From: Candidatus Harpocratesius repetitus
Lineage (GTDB): Archaea; Asgardarchaeota; Lokiarchaeia; Sigyniarchaeales; Promethearchaeaceae
Direction of reading: 5' to 3'
Assembly (NCBI GenBank): GCA_021498095.1
Contig: JAIZWK010000001.1
Coordinates: forward strand, 496,001-560,000
Length of the DNA stretch: 64,000 bases
Shown: positions 1,253 through 19,521 of the stretch, one piece after another
Numbering within the stretch: the first letter of the stretch is position 1
How the letters are laid out: every line of letters starts with the position of its first letter
Notes under the pieces: generated by a model
Seen by the model: the letters and a program-made list of their open reading frames with translations, nothing else
Told to the model about the DNA's origin: nothing
Database searches by the model: none
Program-made: the position numbers and the translations under genes

Positions 1253-4200
1253 TTATTTTTGAAAAAGCGGACGTCTTTGAAAAAAAGTTCTTATCCATCT
1301 ATATCTTCGCTGAAAATGTTCGATTTCTTTGGAGGTTAACTGTGATTTTACCCGACTCATCGCTTGTTGAAGAAGTTCATGTTCTTCAGGATCATGAAAC
1401 TTCACACCCATCTGATATACAATCGAGTATAAAATAAGTGCAGAATAATAATCTTTATTTTTTTCAAATAGAATACCTTTTCGAAAAATTTCATCTTTTC
1501 TGGCAAAGAATTCGGATTCATTCAAAGATTTACGCCCACGCAGAAATACTTCTTGAAAATCTTTTAATGTTCGGTTGATATAATGTAATATTGGTAAAGT
1601 TTCAAGACTATCAAGGTTTTCTTCGTTGGGAATTGATATTTCTTCCCAATATTTAAGATCTGATTTATCTATATCATTTTTTTGTAAATTATTTAATTCA
1701 GGATAATTTGGAGGAGTATCGGGTTTAGGAATGCGTAGAGTGGTAATATTTTCTAAGGAATTTTGAGAAGATTCTACTTTTTCATAATCTTCTAATTTAA
1801 ACGTTGATTTTAATAGAGGAATACTTTTCATTGAATCGTACACAGCAGTATGTTTTAGATATTTATTAGCAAATTTCCTACCAAATAGAATAACAATAGG
1901 TATTCCAATAAGAACAATCCCTGCAATAATTATAAGGGGTATAAAAATCTGTTGAAAAATATTGCGGGTGATTTCTATTTGAATTGTGAATGAATTAGGT
2001 AAATTCGTTCTGGATTCAGGAAAGCTAATACTAATTATTACATAATCAAACTGATCCTTTTTAGGAACATCGAAACCTGAAAGTGTGAAAACGGCATTTT
2101 CATCTGTATAGAGCGATTTCTCAATAGTATTATTAATATTTTTACCGACAAAAACAATTCTTGCAAATATTTCTTGATTTACTGCCTGCCATTCATGAGT
2201 ACCGTTATTGAATCGAATGGAACCGGAGAATTCAAAAGTTTCTTGTTCAACTACATTAATAAGGTCGTTGTAATCAAACAATACAGCCCATTTTGGCATA
2301 ATCTTTAATTCTATTTGGCTAAATTGTTGGGGAGCCAAGTTAGTTGTGTTTGCAAAAATTCTAATTTGATATAAATTCAAAGAAATTAAATTGCTAATTA
2401 GGAAATTTGCCTGATAATAACCAAATAGCGAAGAAGTGAGAGTGAAATGAGTAAAATTTGTAACAGCCAAATTATTAGTTGTATCATAAATATATCCCCA
2501 AATTGAACCGAAATTAAATGGTAAAATACTATTGGGGTCATCCAAATAGGTTGCTTGGTATTGATATTTGATTTTTATTGTAAAAAGCGAACTAAATTGC
2601 TCAAATTCTTGCAAAATAACATGATCTGAATCTGATACTTTGGAAGAATAGGCATTTGATTCAATAAACTCAAGATAAGTTGGAGGTGCGATGATTTCTA
2701 TTGATATTTCCCGATATTGAGATTCACATTTAGAAGTAGCATTTTGACACTTAAGAATCAAAAACAATGAATGTTCTCCCAAAAAATCCATATAACTGAA
2801 AGGATCGGTGTAGAAACGCAAGAAAAAGTTATCATAACTATTGTTTTCTTGCTCAAATTCAAACAACCACCAAGAAGAATCGATTAAAATCTGATCAACA
2901 TAAACAGAAATATTAAATGATGAAGGTGAGAATGACTTTCCTAAAGATTCACCAGAAGAAGTATACCATTTTCCATCTATAGTTAGACTTTGATTGAAAT
3001 ATATTTGAGAATCGCTTATTGTATAAAAAAATGTAGTATTAATAAGAATAAAAACTTGTACAGTGCAAGTTACAGTACGAAATTTATAATGAGAAAAGGT
3101 GATTGTTAGATTAACGTTAGTTCCAGCATGATAGTAATCAGGGTTAGCAAAAAGATCAAAGAAATATCTGTCTGTATCATATCGAATGGAATAATTTCCC
3201 GCCAACCAAGAAAGGGTAATATTTGCATTTGAAATAGATGTATTTTCAGCAGAATTATAAAGTACCCATAATGAATCATCTTCATTGAAAGAATTAATCT
3301 TCACATCAACACTTTTCTGTGAAAGTTTCAAGGTAGCTGATTCTTTAAGGAAATAATGGACCAGAAAAGAACCTGCAGAAGAACCATTATTCCACCATAT
3401 TCGTGCAGTTAAAAAGTTACTATTTACTCGATCAGAAATAACGTATGAAGGGAAAGAAAGTAGATGTGTTGTCTCGTTTGCTAAAGCAGATGTAGTTGAA
3501 TGATTATAGTCAAGAAAATCAGCAGCGGTAAGAATATATGAAGAATTACTTTCAAAAAAGGAGCCATTTGTCTGCCACCATGAAAGCGACACAGTCATTT
3601 CATTTCCTAAAGTGTTACAGTATGGATATATTTCATCCATTGCACTGTAAAATTGTCGACTGGGCGAGATATTGAAAAGTATGGGTTCATTATCAGATAG
3701 TGCAACAATATTTATGAATTCAGAAGAGAGGGTCGAATTAATCCAAATATAAGTCCCAGTGCATGAAAATGATGAATTATTTTCAGAAGTAATTGTAATA
3801 TTTCGCCAATTCTGAGGAAAATAGATCTTGTATCTAAAAGAAGAATTATCAAATACAAGTACAGTTGAATTAATTATCGGAATAGCAGGATCTAAAGATG
3901 AAAACCATTGAACTTCACTACTTAGAGAAGGGATTATAAATTGAGTCAAATTACTGAATTTTTCTTCGTGAATTATTATACTTAGGGAAAAATTAAAGAA
4001 ACAAGATAAATTTGCTTGGAAAAGGATACTAAACTGCCCAAATAACACGGGCCAAGGCCCCTCACCATCAGATTCAGAATTAAATTGGACTTGAAGCGGA
4101 TTTCCTGAAAAATTCCTGATTGATTGGAATCCATCTTGATCAAAAAGGCTTGCTTTAACATAAATATCTGAGATATTCAAAGAAGAATATTCAAGGTACT

Positions 4201-11479: not shown

Positions 11480-11483
11480 ATGA
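11409..11483 (+). CDS. Putative 24-codon leader ORF overlapping the SNF2 start
   Basis: The ATG at 11409 is preceded by a strong ribosome binding site, AAGGAGA, at normal spacing. The frame reads 24 codons (MIEENEYEFNYYPPYSFSLG and four more) and ends at TGA 11481-11483, overlapping the SNF2 ATG at 11480 as ATGA. This geometry is typical of translational coupling. The SNF2 ATG itself has no obvious binding site. Alternatives are a chance ORF, or a -1/+1 frameshift that removed the original N-terminus of SNF2. Confidence 0.45.
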   Translation: MIEENEYEFNYYPPYSFSLGVFIT

Positions 11484-14400
11484 ATCTACAATTAACTTAT
11501 CTTCCCGCAAAATATTGGAACGATCCATCATCTCATTTTCGATTGATTTCTAAAACAAAGAAACCCCCTCAAGATTCTAGCTTTTTTATTATGTGGAGCA
11601 CGAATGAACTTTCTAAATCTTCAAAACTTGAAAATGATTATTCAGTATTGCGAAATAATTTAGAGAAAGAGATAAAATGGTATTTTCCAAAGATTCCTAC
11701 CGCTAAGTTATTGGAATGCGAAATATTTCTTAGTATTCCATATGATAATAAGTTAAAATCCGGAGAATTCCAAAAAGTTTTCCAACTTCGCCCTATTTTT
11801 GGGAAAATCATTCCAATACCTCCAGCAATTAAATTACTTTTTTTTCTTCAAATTATTGAAACTAACGATCGAACAAAACGCATTCCACAGTATTCAGAAT
11901 CAATTAAAACATGGGCATATCTAACAAAATTAACGGTAGAATTGCTCTCTAGGGGAAATTTTGTTCCAACACTTCATGAAATAGATTCTAATACATTTAT
12001 TGGACAGTGGAAGACAATTCTTAAAAGTCAAATGGATTATCAACGTTTTCATTTGATATTAAGAAATAGCGCATGGAGCGCGTTTAATCTTCCTATTGAT
12101 ATTATTCCCCCACATGGAAAAATCAAAGAATTCCAAACATCTGGTTTATGGCACCCATCATATTTGTTTATTGAATATATGGACACAGTTGGAGATTATT
12201 TAATTCGAGAATCATTAACAGATAAATTCTTTGCTCAATTTTCTGCAATATATAATTATTCTCCGCTTGAAATGGAAAATACATGCTTAGAAGATCCTGA
12301 TACACCATGGGATCTAAGATTTCTACATTCTTGCATTAGTAAACATCGAAATTTCAAAATCACTCGATTTTGTGATACTCCTATTCCAGGAATCCTTCGT
12401 AATTGGGTCCAAAATATTCAAGGATTTTCATTTTCTCACGGATTAGCATTCACATTTCGCTTGGAATACCCTAAAACAGAAAAATCAGATTGGACTCTTG
12501 GTTTTTATCTGCAACCTCTTCATGATCCAGATTATTTTATTCCTCTACAAGAATTATGGGGAGGAATATTAACTCATAATGCAGAATTTGCCAATGTTTG
12601 TGATGATGAGAATGGATTACAAGAAGAAACTTTGCGAGCACTGGGAACAGCATCAAAACTTTTTCCACCAATTAAAAGAGCATTATTTGGAAAAGGTCCA
12701 TCACAAGTGAAACTTAAAGCAGCAGAAGTAATGGATTTCATGAGATATTCCATGTATCTTTTAATTCAAGCAGGTTTCAATGTTGTATTACCTGAGGAAT
12801 TTACTGAAAAAGGTCAACAGAGGTTAAGTGCGCGTTTAGTCATTAAGCCTAAATCGCAATCATCACAAAAAAGAACTCATTTTGCCTCTACAAATGCACA
12901 AACAGCATTATTTGACATGGATTCGATGTTAGAATTCCATTGGGAAGGTATGATTGAAGGAAATCGATTAACTGAAAAAGAATTTCTAGAACTTGCGAAT
13001 AATCGAGAACCTCTGATTTTTTGGCGAGATCGTTGGATCTTAGTTGATCCAGAAGATATGGAAAATCTAAGACCAATATTTGAAACACAATCGAAAATAA
13101 AAGGAGAAATATCATATAGTGAAGCATTAAAGCTGGGAATGGTTGGAGATATTCAACTAAGTGAAACATCCAATCATTATGAAGTAGTAGTTGAAGGTGA
13201 ATTTCGAAATATCATCGATACACTTGAGAATATTCAAGAGTTTTCGCCTATTCCAATTCCATCAAATTTCCAAGGAACTCTAAGACCGTATCAGCAATCA
13301 GCACTTACGTGGTTGACACATATGACTTCGCTAAATTTTGGTGTGTGTTTAGCAGATGATATGGGTTTAGGAAAAACAGTTGAAATAATTTCCTTTTTGC
13401 AAAGACGTAAAGAAGATTTTCCTAATGCACCTGGTTCAATATTAATTATTTGCCCTACATCAGTTTTGTTTAACTGGAGAAGGGAAATAAATCGGTTTGC
13501 ACCTGATCTTGAGATTTATACCCACCATGGCCCGAATCGAGTAAAAAATTTACAAGCCCTTCAGAAATTTTCTCAAAACCATTTATTGATTTTAACAACC
13601 TATGGAACTGTCAGAAATGATAGCGAATTTTTAGAAACAATCCATTTTGCAGGAATTATTTTAGATGAATCTCAGAATATCAAAAATTACCAAGCACAAA
13701 AAACAAAAGCAATTCTACGGTTAAAATCCCAATTTAAAATTGCGTTAAGTGGAACACCAATTGAAAATCGGTTACTAGAATTATGGACACTTTTTAGTTT
13801 CCTAAATCCAGGATTATTAGGTAAAAGACGCATTTTTCAACAGAAATTCATCCTTCCAATTGAACGATATCATGATGAACAAATTTCAGCAAAATTGAAG
13901 CGCTTTATTTCACCTTTTATTCTACGACGACTCAAAACTGATACTAACATTATTCAAGATTTACCAGAAAAGAACGAAATAAAAATCTATTTGGAATTAA
14001 GTCCTAAACAAGCACAATTATATGCAAAAGTTGTTCGTGAAACCTTGCAGGAAATCGAAAATCTTGAAAAATCTAATATTCAAAGAAAAGGTCTAATTCT
14101 GAAGCTATTAACGGCAACTAAACAAATATGTAATCATCCTGTCCAATATCTTTATAAAACGAAACATAAAGTGAAAATTTTACCAAAATCAGCACCCATC
14201 AATCAATCCGAAAACCCATCTAATAATCTATCGGAAAAACAATCTGATGATATTGAAATTTCTTATTCAGAATTTTTACATGCATCTCAGAAATTGGAAA
14301 GATTGTCGGAAATGGTGGAAGAAGTCTTGGAAGACGGCGAAAAACTATTAATTTTCACTCAATTCAAACAAATGGGCGATTTATTAAAAGAATTTTTAGA

Positions 14401-14821
14401 ACTAAAATATCACCTTCCAGTCGGATGGTTTCATGGGGGTGTTCCGGAGCGGCAGCGCCAACAATTAGTAGATAATTTCCAATCTACAGCATTAGACTCC
14501 ATTCCAATTCTAATCTTGTCTCTTAGAGCAGGAGGAACGGGTTTGAACCTTACGCAAGCATCTACTGTATTTCACTATGATAGATGGTGGAACCCTGCTG
14601 TTGAAGATCAAGCCACCGATCGAGCTTATAGGATAGGTCAAAAAAAGACTGTTAATGTGTATAAATTTATCACTACCGGAACAATAGAAGAAAAGATTGA
14701 TCAAATGTTGGAAGAAAAGCGGGATCTTGCCGATCGGATTCTTGCTGCAAAAGATGAAACTTGGATCACCGCTCTTTCTAATGACGAATTGAAAGAATTG
14801 TTTAGTCTTTCTTATAGCTAA
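11480..14821 (+). CDS. SNF2-family (SWI2/SNF2, HepA-like) ATPase
   Basis: This 1113-residue protein has a ~590-residue N-terminal region of the type found in prokaryotic SNF2 proteins, then a complete helicase-like core. The core shows LRPYQQSALTWL (about 601), Walker A DDMGLGKT (about 626), Walker B LDESQNIKN (about 728), SGTPIENRLLELW (about 757) and motifs V-VI in GLNLTQAS...DRAYRIGQ (about 1021-1055). Such proteins use ATP to move along duplex DNA and remodel protein-DNA complexes rather than unwinding DNA. Members of this prokaryotic group often sit beside a SWIM zinc-finger gene, as this one once did directly. The last residues are now SLSYS, replacing SLSQIEEGY of the original end, because an insertion begins at codon level near 14812. 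Confidence 0.93.
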   Translation: MNLQLTYLPAKYWNDPSSHFRLISKTKKPPQDSSFFIMWSTNELSKSSKLENDYSVLRNNLEKEIKWYFPKIPTAKLLECEIFLSIPYDNKLKSGEFQKVFQLRPIFGKIIPIPPAIKLLFFLQIIETNDRTKRIPQYSESIKTWAYLTKLTVELLSRGNFVPTLHEIDSNTFIGQWKTILKSQMDYQRFHLILRNSAWSAFNLPIDIIPPHGKIKEFQTSGLWHPSYLFIEYMDTVGDYLIRESLTDKFFAQFSAIYNYSPLEMENTCLEDPDTPWDLRFLHSCISKHRNFKITRFCDTPIPGILRNWVQNIQGFSFSHGLAFTFRLEYPKTEKSDWTLGFYLQPLHDPDYFIPLQELWGGILTHNAEFANVCDDENGLQEETLRALGTASKLFPPIKRALFGKGPSQVKLKAAEVMDFMRYSMYLLIQAGFNVVLPEEFTEKGQQRLSARLVIKPKSQSSQKRTHFASTNAQTALFDMDSMLEFHWEGMIEGNRLTEKEFLELANNREPLIFWRDRWILVDPEDMENLRPIFETQSKIKGEISYSEALKLGMVGDIQLSETSNHYEVVVEGEFRNIIDTLENIQEFSPIPIPSNFQGTLRPYQQSALTWLTHMTSLNFGVCLADDMGLGKTVEIISFLQRRKEDFPNAPGSILIICPTSVLFNWRREINRFAPDLEIYTHHGPNRVKNLQALQKFSQNHLLILTTYGTVRNDSEFLETIHFAGIILDESQNIKNYQAQKTKAILRLKSQFKIALSGTPIENRLLELWTLFSFLNPGLLGKRRIFQQKFILPIERYHDEQISAKLKRFISPFILRRLKTDTNIIQDLPEKNEIKIYLELSPKQAQLYAKVVRETLQEIENLEKSNIQRKGLILKLLTATKQICNHPVQYLYKTKHKVKILPKSAPINQSENPSNNLSEKQSDDIEISYSEFLHASQKLERLSEMVEEVLEDGEKLLIFTQFKQMGDLLKEFLELKYHLPVGWFHGGVPERQRQQLVDNFQSTALDSIPILILSLRAGGTGLNLTQASTVFHYDRWWNPAVEDQATDRAYRIGQKKTVNVYKFITTGTIEEKIDQMLEEKRDLADRILAAKDETWITALSNDELKELFSLSYS
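14694..14811 (+). repeat. Direct repeat, left copy (inside SNF2 3' end)
   Basis: These 118 bp at the end of the SNF2 gene match 17331-17448 with only about two mismatches that I could see by eye. The copies bracket a ~2.5-kb inserted segment. Confidence 0.93.
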
Positions 14822-15115
14822 TTTTTTTTAGAAATCGAGATTCTTTCTAAATTTTAAAATCATCAATTTTAATGTCTTTTCTATTTTGATATCCACAATT
14901 TATTTTATGTTAAAGAGTGTTCTATTTAATATAATTCTATAAAAATTTACAAATTGTGCATTCATGCATGATTAGGCTTTAATTACTATAATTATATGTA
15001 ATTATAAGAATACAATGCTCTAAATGAAACCTTTATTTCATAATTTGTATAAATTGAATATTAAAATAAATGCTTTTTATGTGAATTAAAAATAATTTTT
15101 TTTAAAAAGCGATTT
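14822..15115. other. Intergenic, nested inverted repeats between convergent genes
   Basis: This AT-rich stretch lies between the SNF2 stop and the LRR gene stop, which converge. TAATTAC (14980-14986) pairs with GTAATTA (14998-15004). An outer pair, TACAAATT (14948-14955) and AATTTGTA (15043-15050), encloses it. It may serve as a shared terminator, or be part of the inserted element. There is no coding potential. Confidence 0.45.
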
Positions 15116-16153
15116 TTATTTACTCAAATCAATTTTTTCTGCCATCATCCGTAGCATGTTCTCTTCGGGAACCTTTTTAAAGGGATCGAGCAAGTATTCA
15201 AATGCCAACTCATAATAAGTGCGAGAAAAATGATCAAAATAATCATCGAAGATTTTTCCAATAGGTATTCTTATAGATCTTGGAGAATATTCTGGAAAGG
15301 GTAAGTTAGGATAATTTAAATCAAAAATAATTGCCTTTTCGTTATAATACAACCATATTTTCTTTGATTTTAGAATGTTATATTGTGAGGCGGTCAACTC
15401 GATAGCAGAGGGGGAATATATTTTGAGTTTTTCGAGATGTGGGGCATTTATAAGAGAGGAAGGTAAAGAGTGTATATTTTTAGAATTGTAAAGAGTGAGT
15501 TCAGAGAATTCAGGCATTAAATTAAAAAGATTTGGTAATTGAGTGATTTTGGGGGTTAATAGATAAAGACCTTTAAGATAATGATGATCTTTAAAGAATT
15601 GCTGTGGAAAGTTTTGGAGTCGATAAAGAATTAAGGTCGAAGCAGTTAATTTTGAAAGACGGTTGAGCCAAGAGGGCATTTCCTTAATGAATTGATCTTC
15701 AAAATAAATATATTTAAGATTGGGTAAGAAGTCAGGTAATTGTTCCAACATTTCATTTAATTCATCCGACGGCTCTTTATGTAAGCCAATCAAATAAATC
15801 GAATGAATATACTCAACTTTTCGATTCGTAGGATTGAATTTATCATAATCTGTTAGAAAAGTAGCACTAACTGTAATAAATGGTAAATCCTTACAATCAA
15901 AGGCATTGGTTTCATCTTCCCAAATTACACGTAATTCTTGCAAATAGGATGCAGTTTGGCGGTCAAGTTCATCAAATGGAGGATGTATATTTGCACAGTA
16001 ATGAGATGGGCGGAAACATAGTCGACGATTACTGTAGATACACTGCATATGCGGATTGTTTTTTTTTGGATTGAAAAGTTTAAGTTTTGGGGCTTCAATC
16101 CAGATTTGTCCCTTAGTTGCTCGATCCCACGCCGATATTTTATGTTTTTTCAT
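15116..16153 (-). CDS. Leucine-rich-repeat protein carried in the insertion
   Basis: The 345-residue protein has no signal or membrane helix. Residues about 115-270 hold degenerate leucine-rich repeats (for example LPNLKYIYFEDQFIKEMPSWL, LKGLYLLTPKITQLPNLF and LPSSLINAPHLEKLKI). The N-terminal ~100 residues contain several Cys and His (MQCIYSNRRLCFRPSHYCANIH) and may bind a metal. LRRs usually form protein-binding surfaces. The gene lies wholly within the segment that split SNF2 from SWIM and runs opposite to them, so it was probably carried in. I see no transposition or toxin motif. Function is unknown. Confidence 0.75.
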   Translation of the reverse strand: MKKHKISAWDRATKGQIWIEAPKLKLFNPKKNNPHMQCIYSNRRLCFRPSHYCANIHPPFDELDRQTASYLQELRVIWEDETNAFDCKDLPFITVSATFLTDYDKFNPTNRKVEYIHSIYLIGLHKEPSDELNEMLEQLPDFLPNLKYIYFEDQFIKEMPSWLNRLSKLTASTLILYRLQNFPQQFFKDHHYLKGLYLLTPKITQLPNLFNLMPEFSELTLYNSKNIHSLPSSLINAPHLEKLKIYSPSAIELTASQYNILKSKKIWLYYNEKAIIFDLNYPNLPFPEYSPRSIRIPIGKIFDDYFDHFSRTYYELAFEYLLDPFKKVPEENMLRMMAEKIDLSK

Positions 16154-17330
16154 GTATACATTACCATTGATTACCTTTTGCTTATTGTAGATATATTTAA
16201 GAAATTCAAATATAAAAATTTGGTTTAAAAAAAGTTAACTCGTAAATCCAATTATTAAATATCGGGCTATTTTTAATTACGAAGGATCAATTCACTAACA
16301 CCTCGGTTTGAATTTTTTTCCCCCATTTTTCGTTTGATTGAAATAATCGTTTAATTTCTGAATTATTCCACTCATTAAAGAGAATTTTTGGGCTAAATCG
16401 GTGTGGAACAATGGTATTTCCTAAGATTTCGTGTTAATTTGTGATTGTAATTTATGCCTGAAGTCGCTGTTCTAAACCCTCAGGTGTTTTAGGACCAGTT
16501 TAATGCACGCGAGTCTTAATCCTACTATTAATATTCTCCGCCAGATTATTTGATATAACTTTTGCCACAAATAGTCTTGTATTTCCTTTATAGCAACTGT
16601 AACTGCGGAAAGCACATTTTTTGCTAGTTTGAGATTTTTATAAAAAAGACTATTTTTGCATATCCCTGCTTTTCATTGTCAAAATCTTTAAAATGGTACA
16701 CGCTTTGCTTAAAAATTTCAGAATAATTGCCAATAAATTTTTTTTGAATTAAAATTTTGAAATAATTTAAAAAATAAGGCTTTTCTTAATTGATCCTTCA
16801 TTCTTAAAAATAGTCGGTTTCTATTTAACAGAAATTAATTTCCATTTAAGCACTTGAAATGGACAACAAAAAACCACTTTTTCCATTCTGATCTCTGAGA
16901 ATTTGTTCTGCCTTCGGCTTTTGAAGGGAATTATTTTTGTAACTTGAGTAACTGAACTGAAGGAAAGATTTCTAGAATTAAGCGAATCCGACGTGGTAAT
17001 TTATCAAGAAAAATGCTAAGAACCGAATCAAAAAGTACAAAAGGGATTTAAGATTATAGATTATCGCCAACCACTCTACAATATTCCCTAAAAGAGGTCT
17101 TAAATCCTATGATTAATAATACTGAGCACTTAAAAGAATTTAAGGAATTCATCAATCTTTTTGATTGAATAATATTATATTTTATAATGATCAAAATCAA
17201 TTAAGGAAGTAAAAAATCTGAAAAATTTAACTATAAATCATTCAAAGACAAGCTGTTGACTTTTAAAAAAATTAACATAAAATTAAATAAAATAGAAGTC
17301 TACTTAATTGCGAATAATAATATTTCCTAT
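16154..17330. other. Non-coding, decayed remainder of the inserted segment
   Basis: There is no intact ORF in about 1.2 kb. The left half holds a transposase relic on the minus strand (listed separately). The right half (about 16930-17170) shows short broken plus-strand coding-like stretches I cannot assign. The base composition is very AT-rich. The stretch ends at the right copy of the 118-bp direct repeat. Confidence 0.7.
16289..16790 (-). pseudogene. Degenerate insertion-sequence transposase remnant
   Basis: Read on the minus strand, the region gives a recognisable DDE-transposase C-terminus: SNNLAENINSRIKTRVH, then TGPKTPEGLEQRLQA, then a tail ending in EVLVN and a stop at about 16289. 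The catalytic-glutamate pattern N-x-x-AENxNxRxK is typical of IS transposases. At least three in-frame stops and a frameshift interrupt it. Upstream pieces such as KFIGNYSEIFKQSVYHFKDF continue in another frame to about 16790. No terminal inverted repeats were found. The IS family cannot be fixed from this relic. Confidence 0.65.
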
Positions 17331-17448
17331 AGATTGATCAAATGTTGGAAGAAAAACGGGATCTTGCCGATCGGATTCTTGCTGCAAAGGATGAAACTTG
17401 GATCACCGCTCTTTCTAATGACGAATTGAAAGAATTGTTTAGTCTTTC
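17331..17448 (+). repeat. Direct repeat, right copy (beside SWIM gene)
   Basis: This copy corresponds to 14694-14811 at the same length, 118 bp, with differences at the third base of a Lys codon region (AAGC versus AAAC) and at AAAG versus AAGG. It marks the right border of the insertion. Confidence 0.93.
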
Positions 17449-17470
17449 GCAGATTGAGGAGGGATATTGA
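17333..17470 (+). pseudogene. Orphan 3' end of the SNF2 gene
   Basis: This is a 45-codon in-frame fragment that repeats the SNF2 C-terminus (IDQMLEEKRDLADRIL...) and continues past the repeat into QIEEGY and TGA at 17468-17470. The stop overlaps the SWIM ATG. The final codons also contain GAGGAGGG, the ribosome binding site for the SWIM gene. This is the original downstream end of SNF2, left behind when the insertion separated the two genes. Confidence 0.88.
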
Positions 17471-18438
17471 TGCAACGTCGAACCAAAGAATCTAGAAAGC
17501 CAAAAAAAACACAAAATGGCCATAATTCAAGAAATGGACATAAAACAAGAAAAGGTCGTTATTTAGGAAATAATCGAAACGTACGGAAAGAAGTGCAAGA
17601 AATCAAGAGAGAATTGCACGGATTTGCAAAAACTAAATGGGGACAAATTTGGGTGGATCATATGTTAGAGTATGGTCGTCCGTTTCGAATGCAAAGAGGT
17701 ATTCGCTATGCACAAGAAGAAAGAGTATCTAATATCACAATTTCTCCAGGAATGATCTTTGCAACAGTTCAAGGAACTGCTCCAACCCCCTATTTAGTAA
17801 AAGTCCGATTTGAAACAATACCTGAAGATGTTTGGTATCAAATTGCCATGAAAATTGCAGAAAAAGCCTATTACACGATAAAATTATTAGAAAATACCAT
17901 TCCGGAGGATTTTGAATCAATTTTTGAAGAAGTGGGATATGAATTGTTTCCAGATCCAACAACAAGTTTAAATGCATCATGTTCTTGTCCTGATAAAGAA
18001 ATTCCTTGTAAACACATAGCTGCGACAATTTTATATGTTGCTCGTGTATTTGATTATGATCCATTCCTCTTACTAAAATTACGGGGAAAAGCTCGTGATG
18101 AATTATTACAAACGATTAAAAATGCACGAAGTTGCGCAAATGAACCAATTACAATTTCTGTAAAAAAGATTCGAGAAATGGTTAATATTGCAGATAAAAG
18201 TTTTGAAGTGCCAATTCTTCCAGTTCAAGAATTAAACGTAAATTCATTCTTAAAACCAACAACTCCCTATAATATTGGTTTTCGATTTTTAAAACCAGGA
18301 ACTGATATAAAAACATTAGATACGCTAAACTTGGCTCCAAATTTAGAAAAACCGGATCAATTTTATCAAGTTTTTCGAGACTTGTATTTAGTAGTCTCCA
18401 AAAAAGCTTATGGAATGGCAAAAAAATTAAATGAATAA
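17470..18438 (+). CDS. SWIM zinc-finger protein
   Basis: This 322-residue protein contains the SWIM signature C-x-C-x(n)-C-x-H as CSCPDKEIPCKH at about residues 171-182, inside the usual SSCSCP...CKHIAA helix context. SWIM fingers bind DNA or proteins, and in prokaryotes they are usually the partner of a SNF2 ATPase. I chose the ATG at 17470: it sits 6-8 bases after GAGGAGGG and overlaps the SNF2 remnant stop as TGATG. A TTG three bases earlier is possible but less likely. The N-terminal ~40 residues are very basic. With SNF2 now 2.6 kb upstream, coupling of the two products has been lost, and any promoter must lie in the inserted DNA. Confidence 0.88.
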   Translation: MQRRTKESRKPKKTQNGHNSRNGHKTRKGRYLGNNRNVRKEVQEIKRELHGFAKTKWGQIWVDHMLEYGRPFRMQRGIRYAQEERVSNITISPGMIFATVQGTAPTPYLVKVRFETIPEDVWYQIAMKIAEKAYYTIKLLENTIPEDFESIFEEVGYELFPDPTTSLNASCSCPDKEIPCKHIAATILYVARVFDYDPFLLLKLRGKARDELLQTIKNARSCANEPITISVKKIREMVNIADKSFEVPILPVQELNVNSFLKPTTPYNIGFRFLKPGTDIKTLDTLNLAPNLEKPDQFYQVFRDLYLVVSKKAYGMAKKLNE

Positions 18439-18840: not shown

Positions 18841-19521
18841 TTAGATATAAAATGAATTATCGCTAACTTTTACATTTTCCCTTATATTTTGGGAATTCAA
18901 AATTTGTGCTCGATTTCGCATATCCTTAACAATTTTATCGTGAGTTTCCAAAATATCAACAAATAATCCACCTTTTAATAAACTTAAGAAAAGGTCAAAA
19001 TTCAAAGTTCGATGAGCTAATCGCGTATTTACTAAAAGATAAGCCAATAAATCGATTTCACCTTGGACCTGCGTCATCATTGCCATAAAACTATCTTGAT
19101 CTTCTATTGCATTGCTTTCTGCCACTTCTGCTAACCTCATTTTGCAAAAATCGTAAAATCCGGACTCTAAAATAGCATTTAATATTAATTTTTTATTTGC
19201 ATGGGAGAAGAGCAGTTGATCTGAACGTGTAAACCCAGAAATTGTTTCATCAATTGCCACATTTAGGTAATCCATTAATGAATTCAATGCTTTTTGGTAG
19301 TTAAAGAAATTGCTTACATCGATTATTTGAACATTTTCATCTTCTTCATTATTATCTTTATCATCATTGACTTCAGGATTATCATTTTCTTTTCTATCTT
19401 TATTTTCTATTCTATCCTTATTTTCTTCTTTATCTTCATTTTCTTTGCGATTCCTATCTTTATAATTATAATTATTTTTCTTTTTATTAGATTGCCCATT
19501 TTCTTTCTTATCTTTATTCAC
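18841..19521 (-). CDS. Hypothetical protein with charged low-complexity N-terminus
   Basis: This 226-residue protein begins with ~65 residues made almost only of Lys, Glu, Asn, Asp and Arg in short reiterations (KENxDKEENKDRIENKDRKE), probably disordered. A compact helical domain follows (about 70-215). There are no membrane segments or known motifs. The gene lies downstream of the EMC3-like gene on the same strand, with a 168-bp gap. The low-complexity DNA is prone to slippage, so its length may vary between strains. Confidence 0.7.
   Translation of the reverse strand: MNKDKKENGQSNKKKNNYNYKDRNRKENEDKEENKDRIENKDRKENDNPEVNDDKDNNEEDENVQIIDVSNFFNYQKALNSLMDYLNVAIDETISGFTRSDQLLFSHANKKLILNAILESGFYDFCKMRLAEVAESNAIEDQDSFMAMMTQVQGEIDLLAYLLVNTRLAHRTLNFDLFLSLLKGGLFVDILETHDKIVKDMRNRAQILNSQNIRENVKVSDNSFYI

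What the first reader, a model, noticed from the sequence alone, without database searches (positions are those of the whole stretch)
14694..17470. A ~2.5-kb insertion split a coupled SNF2-SWIM gene pair and left 118-bp direct repeats
The end of the SNF2 gene occurs twice, at 14694-14811 and 17331-17448, equal in length and almost identical. The right copy continues into the true SNF2 end, whose stop overlaps the SWIM start and carries its ribosome binding site. So the two genes were once adjacent and coupled. A 118-bp duplication is far too long for an ordinary IS target duplication. It instead resembles an element that integrated while restoring the 3' end of its target gene, or a recombination event. 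The SNF2 product was left with a changed C-terminus (SYS for QIEEGY). No integrase is visible inside.
Basis: partly seen in the sequence, partly recalled or inferred. Interest (0 to 1): 0.78.

Follow-up and report, generated by a model that had tools for sequence, protein, structure and literature searches.

The report
Insertion duplicated a gene's tail end
In an Asgard-type archaeon a 2.5-kb piece of DNA has wedged itself between two partner genes and left two copies of the last 118 letters of the first gene, so neither gene was broken; related archaea show that selfish DNA-cutting genes repeatedly insert at gene ends in a similar, gene-sparing way.

Summary
14694-14811 and 17331-17448 are a 118-bp direct repeat, 98.3% identical, with two differences, both at third codon positions. 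In 27 related genomes SNF2 directly abuts SWIM, so the uninterrupted order is ancestral and the right copy is the original gene end. The insert (14812-17330) holds an LRR-like gene found only in this genome among its family, a 551-bp MITE lacking its usual 8-bp target duplication, and a truncated second repeat. No integrase or homing endonuclease was found. It is a decayed mosaic, not an intact element.

One relative (G024) was hit independently at the same gene end. There a LAGLIDADG homing endonuclease lies between a diverged in-frame SNF2 tail and the displaced original tail. This endonuclease family shows terminal-gene repeats at 12 of 70 places, against 6 of 574 random placements, on about ten gene types. 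That resembles fungal mitochondrial mORFs.

The window probably does not belong to that class. Its copies are near-identical, so every native site of up to 118 bp survives and a homing nuclease would gain no immunity. Best reading: decayed integration of foreign DNA carrying its own SNF2 tail (e14/icd-like). Aberrant break repair is a close rival.

The parts
11480..14821 (+). SNF2 helicase gene (DUF3670-SNF2-Helicase_C), 1113 aa, intact, ending in the left copy of the tail (...FSLSYS*)
14694..14811 (+). left copy of the 118-bp direct repeat, in frame as the current SNF2 C-terminus
14812..14821 (+). changed SNF2 end supplied by the insert (TTATAGCTAA = Y S stop), followed by T8
14812..17330 (.). 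inserted segment (2519 bp), absent from SNF2-SWIM loci of 27 relatives
15116..16153 (-). 345-aa LRR-like ORF; four paralogues (38-40%) in this genome, none in the other 7 genomes of the family
16265..16815 (.). 551-bp MITE with terminal inverted repeats GGCTATTTTTAA...TTAAAAATAGTC; longer copies are 1593 bp; nearly all other copies have 8-bp target duplications, this one has none
16828..17165 (.). 338-bp truncated end of a second repeat that is at least 1.84 kb long at two other places
17331..17448 (+). right copy of the 118-bp repeat: the displaced original end of SNF2
17333..17470 (+). remnant of the native SNF2 end (IDQMLEEKR...FSLSQIEEGY, stop TGA 17468-17470) with the ribosome-binding region of SWIM
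17470..18438 (+). SWIM zinc-finger gene, intact, start overlapping the old SNF2 stop
14694..14700 (+). AGATTGA at the start of the repeat (microhomology, first site)
17451..17457 (+). AGATTGA 2 bp after the end of the repeat in native sequence (microhomology, second site)

Best explanation
A piece of foreign or mobile DNA that carried its own near-identical copy of the last ~118 bp of SNF2 joined the chromosome within that stretch, by site-specific recombination (as prophage e14 does in icd) or by a single homologous crossover. The gene body was joined to the incoming tail, which brought a new end (YS-stop). The original tail, with the SWIM ribosome-binding site and start, was pushed 2.6 kb downstream. 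Both genes stayed intact and the insertion was tolerated. Afterwards the element decayed: mobile repeats entered it, part of it (perhaps with a recombinase) was deleted, and an LRR-like cargo gene remains. Shown: the duplication, the ancestral uninterrupted order, which tail is native, the mosaic and rearranged insert, intact SNF2 and SWIM. Inferred: that the left tail came with the element, the recombination route, and the loss of a recombinase.
For: Uninterrupted SNF2-SWIM in 27 relatives. The right copy is native and the left end is new. The two copies differ only at two synonymous sites, as expected for a tail from a very close relative. The insert's unique part (14812-16264) has no DNA match elsewhere in the genome, so it is not a recent copy of a resident locus. 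The LRR gene family is absent from the 7 other genomes of the family. MITE without TSD beside a truncated repeat means internal rearrangement, so an integrase could have been lost. Taking G001 (AAG, AAG) as the native state at the two differing codons, left is native then changed and right is changed then native, as after a crossover between them (weak: two sites). Precedent: e14 separates 163 bp of icd and supplies a replacement end (PMC6379469).
Against: No integrase, recombinase or attachment-site arms are present, and no second copy of the element or of the SNF2 tail exists elsewhere in the genome. The 7-bp AGATTGA at both boundaries is not predicted by this model and favours a slippage or repair origin. 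The crossover pattern rests on two sites and one relative whose protein is only about 70% identical.
Confidence: 0.4

Rival explanations
1. Aberrant double-strand-break repair or template switching. A break near CTTTC^GC at the end of SNF2 was repaired with copying of ~118 bp from the sister copy, helped by the AGATTGA microhomology, and stray DNA was captured at the same time. The duplication is a by-product with no dedicated machinery.
For: AGATTGA begins the repeat and recurs 2 bp after its end; it occurs only 21 times in both strands of the 64-kb window, so a chance match within +/-3 bp of the boundary is about 1.6e-3 (post hoc). The insert looks like a patchwork (LRR gene, MITE, truncated repeat). 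No recombinase inside.
Against: The insert's unique part has no source copy left in the genome, although the 98% identity suggests a recent event. A separate later insertion would have to hit the duplication junction to within 2 bp.
Confidence: 0.33
2. Relic of a gene-rescuing homing element as found in relatives: a homing endonuclease gene linked to a replacement tail of its target invaded the SNF2 end; the nuclease was later lost and the tails were homogenised by gene conversion.
For: G024 carries such an element at the end of the same gene. The nuclease family shows the pattern at 12/70 places against 6/574 random ones. An LRR gene together with a homing endonuclease has been reported in the Heimdallarchaeal element HeimM2 (PMC8813620).
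Against: Tails in the homing-endonuclease cases are about 76-84% identical in DNA, here 98%. Because the copies overlap by 118 near-identical bp, every native site up to 118 bp is still intact in the interrupted allele apart from two substitutions, so there is no immunity. This genome has no member of the nuclease family, and no remnant was found in the insert.
Confidence: 0.2
3. Assembly or strain-mixing artefact at a repeat.
For: Only one genome of this species was available, and reads could not be checked; contamination is estimated at 4.49%.
Against: The genome is one 4.36-Mb contig. Both junctions are gene-consistent, the insert contains repeats resident in this genome, and a comparable structure exists independently in G024.
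Confidence: 0.04

Closest known systems
Prophage e14 in E. coli icd (tail-restoring integrative element; PMC6379469, citing Hill et al. 1989)
   Same: A protein gene's 3' end (163 bp there, 118 bp here) is duplicated; the gene keeps a replaced end and the old end survives as a fragment beyond the insert
   Different: e14 is a site-specifically integrated prophage; this insert is 2.5 kb, lacks any recombinase and has decayed; archaeal host
Fungal mitochondrial mobile ORFs (mORFs) in atp6, atp9, cox2, nad3 (PMC3630166) and the Allomyces atp6 case cited there
   Same: Inserted tail plus extra gene, then the displaced native tail; the target gene stays readable. G024 matches in detail, including the test that the displaced tail is the native one
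   Different: mORFs encode LAGLIDADG or GIY-YIG endonucleases and their two tails are strongly diverged; the window has no endonuclease and near-identical tails
Synthetic home-and-rescue (HomeR) gene drive (PMC7968924)
   Same: A nuclease inserted at the end of a conserved gene with a recoded 3' end that rescues the gene; same logic as G024 and its kin
   Different: Engineered Cas9/gRNA system; only an analogy, and not for the window itself
HeimM2 of Heimdallarchaeum (PMC8813620)
   Same: Small Asgard mobile element with an LRR protein gene
   Different: 8 kb, carries a homing-endonuclease homologue and lies between the 16S rRNA gene and a tRNA gene

Membership tests
Integrase-type 3'-end-restoring element (e14/icd type) | Direct repeat made of the target gene's 3' end at both borders | tested here: met
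   118 bp, 98%
Integrase-type 3'-end-restoring element (e14/icd type) | Target gene still encodes a full-length product with an element-supplied end | tested here: met
   1113-aa ORF; only the last residues changed; that the end was element-supplied is inferred
Integrase-type 3'-end-restoring element (e14/icd type) | Encodes a site-specific recombinase | tested here: not met
   No such ORF or remnant seen in the insert; loss by deletion possible
Integrase-type 3'-end-restoring element (e14/icd type) | Excised circular form or empty site in the population | not testable with these tools
   No reads or second strain available; empty sites only in other species
Gene-rescuing homing element (fungal mORF type), window | Homing endonuclease gene between the two tails | tested here: not met
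   Family profile against six frames of the insert: nothing above noise; no hit in the genome
Gene-rescuing homing element (fungal mORF type), window | Replacement tail diverged from the native tail so that the nuclease site is destroyed | tested here: not met
   98% identity; first difference 25 bp into the repeat; both borders keep native sequence
Gene-rescuing homing element (fungal mORF type), G024 locus L024 | LAGLIDADG gene between two tails | tested here: met
   415-aa ORF, PF14528 2.7e-5 (24.8 bits, cutoff 22.5); family profile matches I-DmoI/I-CreI chimera, I-HjeMI and I-AniI weakly
Gene-rescuing homing element (fungal mORF type), G024 locus L024 | Displaced tail is closer to the sister species than the in-frame tail is | tested here: met
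   Displaced tail 85.9% over 198 nt to G012; in-frame tail 79.5% over about 130 nt, then not alignable
Gene-rescuing homing element (fungal mORF type), G024 locus L024 | Endonuclease cuts the uninterrupted allele and drives its own copying | not testable with these tools
   Needs biochemistry
IS/MITE insertion with target duplication | Short fixed-length target duplication at the borders of the insert | tested here: not met
   Resident MITE makes 8-bp duplications; the insert borders show 118 bp

The most novel reading that the evidence does not exclude
Asgard archaea host a widespread class of nuclease elements that insert into conserved genes and rebuild the severed end with a diverged copy (natural home-and-rescue drives). 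The SNF2-SWIM junction is one of their recurrent targets, and the window insertion is an old member whose nuclease was lost and whose tails were homogenised.
Probability: 0.2. Interest if true: 0.72.

Novelty: new variant of a known kind. Interest (0 to 1): 0.52.

Why it matters
The window shows how an insertion can enter a coupled gene pair without breaking either gene. Following it up exposed a more general strategy in relatives: LAGLIDADG genes next to a rebuilt end of their target gene, on about ten conserved gene types and on 3' and apparently also 5' ends. That layout was described for fungal mitochondria and is mirrored in engineered home-and-rescue gene drives. I found no report of it for archaeal chromosomes in the open-access papers searched. 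If confirmed, it gives a natural prokaryotic system for studying how selfish nucleases avoid killing their host gene, and it warns that gene ends in these archaea may have a different history from the gene bodies, which matters for phylogenies of Asgard proteins.

Tried and rejected
Homing-endonuclease remnant in the insert: family profile against six frames, nothing above noise; none in this genome. Second copy of the element or SNF2 tail elsewhere in the genome: none. LRR paralogues as markers of similar insertions: no direct repeats around the four others. LRR relatives in viral contigs: none. Oligo-T terminator after the new stop as a sign of a designed gene end: T8 follows 0.7% of gene ends and 0.4% of random noncoding places, so uninformative. 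tRNA copies as the cause of the repeat around the endonuclease in L089: no tRNA found. Native-tail test in the phosphoglucomutase case: mixed, because same-genus G027 and G014 match the in-frame tail better over its first part while the last codons of G027 match the displaced tail.
Full report
1. The observation. The window lies in a 4.36-Mb single-contig genome (G000) whose order includes MAGs titled Candidatus Lokiarchaeota: contig lengths link G044 to LW60_5 and G040 to Zod_Metabat.1389. The species itself was not identified. The 118-bp repeat is exact in position and length. The two differences are K-codon third positions (AAG/AAA and AAA/AAG). SNF2 (1113 aa) and SWIM are both intact.

2. 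The ancestral state. In 27 other genomes holding this SNF2, SWIM follows with little or no gap; only G000 and G024 are interrupted. G001, same genus, ends SLSQTTEVY, matching the right copy's SLSQIEEGY and not the left copy's SLSYS. So the right copy is the displaced original end and the left end is new.

3. The insert. 14812-17330 contains (a) an LRR-like ORF on the minus strand (15116-16153) with four 38-40% paralogues in G000 and no relative in the other seven genomes of the family; Pfam sees only sub-threshold LRR. (b) A 551-bp MITE (16265-16815), one of roughly 35 full or partial copies of a family whose longer members are 1593 bp; of the copies whose ends were read, nearly all have 8-bp target duplications, but this one has AAATATCG on one side and GGTTTCTA on the other. 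(c) The terminal 338 bp (16828-17165) of a second repeat that is at least 1.84 kb long at two other places. The part outside these repeats has no DNA match elsewhere in the genome. The insert is therefore a rearranged mosaic and its original content is uncertain.

4. An independent case at the same gene end. In G024 (another family of the order) the order is SNF2 with an in-frame tail, a 415-aa ORF, a second SNF2 tail, SWIM. The ORF is a LAGLIDADG protein (PF14528, 24.8 bits against a cutoff of 22.5); the family profile matches solved homing endonucleases weakly (I-DmoI/I-CreI chimera, I-HjeMI, I-AniI). The displaced tail is 85.9% identical to the sister genome G012 over 198 nt, while the in-frame tail reaches 79.5% over about 130 nt and then cannot be aligned. 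This is the test used for fungal mitochondrial mORFs (PMC3630166), with the same outcome: the displaced tail is native, the in-frame tail is foreign or strongly diverged.

5. A wider pattern. Relatives of this nuclease occur in 42 of 97 genomes. At 70 places tested with 1.5-kb flanks, 12 show a same-strand translated repeat across the nuclease, against 5 of 400 random placements in G000 and 1 of 174 in other genomes (that one is G024 itself); Fisher p = 1.7e-7 and 1.2e-8. The controls are not from exactly the same genomes, and at least two of the 12 (L089, not a recognised gene; L137, 47% identity) are doubtful. Targets with a rebuilt 3' end: SNF2, phosphoglucomutase, AMP-binding enzyme, metallo-beta-lactamase fold protein, alcohol dehydrogenase, DeoC-type aldolase (three genomes), a radical SAM protein; with wider flanks a DegT aminotransferase and apparent 5'-end cases (GH38 mannosidase, DNA methylase, an unassigned protein). 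Tails are mostly 76-84% identical in DNA with the reading frame conserved. In the phosphoglucomutase case it is unclear which tail is native.

6. Why the window is probably not a member of that class. Upstream sequence runs native to 14811, and downstream sequence is native from 17331. Because these stretches overlap by 118 nearly identical bp, any native recognition site of up to 118 bp is still complete in the interrupted allele, apart from two substitutions, the first of them 25 bp into the repeat. A homing nuclease would go on cutting such an allele. G024, in contrast, differs within a few bases of its junction. No nuclease of the family exists in this genome. The relic reading would need both loss of the nuclease and homogenisation of the tails.

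7. Mechanism. Two models fit the near-identical overlap. In the first, incoming DNA carried a close copy of the SNF2 tail and integrated in it, by a recombinase or a single crossover, as prophage e14 does in icd with a 163-bp duplicated fragment (PMC6379469). In the second, a break near the end of SNF2 was repaired with duplication of the tail and capture of DNA. For the first: the insert has no source in the genome, its gene is lineage-specific, and the two mismatches are arranged as after a crossover between them if G001 shows the native state (weak). For the second: AGATTGA starts the repeat and recurs 2 bp after its end, and no recombinase is present. I lean to the first (0.40 against 0.33).

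8. Consequences. SNF2 lost only its last few residues. SWIM keeps its ribosome-binding region but is now 2.6 kb from SNF2, beyond a gene on the opposite strand, so its transcription may have changed; this is untested. Homologous recombination between the repeats would restore the original pair exactly.

9. Verdict. Observation confirmed; interpretation partly supported. The window itself is a modest, well-defined variant of tail-duplicating insertion. The literature check covered only open-access papers.

Noticed in passing
L024 (G024:C95) 2330-3804: LAGLIDADG homing endonuclease gene at the SNF2 3' end, with a diverged rebuilt tail and the displaced native tail.
   Followed up: yes
L075/L076, L080, L095, L096, L101, L103, L114, L117, L125: Relatives of that endonuclease next to other genes with a second, diverged copy of the gene's 3' end on the far side.
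   Followed up: partly
L093, L129, L149: Endonuclease loci with a repeat of the gene's 5' end instead (GH38 mannosidase, unassigned protein, DNA methylase).
   Followed up: partly
L279, L280, L281, L282, L287 (aldolase gene, after ...GVD): A 32-nt frame-breaking hairpin insertion at the same position of a DeoC-type aldolase in five genomes (three with the endonuclease), absent from about 25 orthologues; the stem is kept despite sequence change, resembling a very small BHB-type archaeal intron.
   Followed up: partly
L263 12458-14224 (G000 about 2.6125-2.6142 Mb): Another possible gene-end duplication in the same genome: a 67-bp, 84% repeat (27 bp exact at its end) flanking what looks like a VapB/VapC pair (by eye; no Pfam hit).
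   Followed up: partly
G000, many places; window 16265-16815: A 551-bp MITE family derived from a 1593-bp IS encoding a 460-aa transposase-like protein, with 8-bp target duplications; L055 also lacks a matching duplication.
   Followed up: partly
L061 and L063: A repeat of at least 1.84 kb, 95% identical between two places, without a long ORF; its end is the 338-bp piece in the window.
   Followed up: no
L138-L141: Four further LRR-like paralogues found only in this genome of the family; two follow long unassigned ORFs whose C-termini resemble each other (GHFWINAPK / LGYVWSHYKP).
   Followed up: no
window 18841-19521: 226-aa ORF with a highly repetitive charged N-terminus (K/N/E/D-rich).
   Followed up: no
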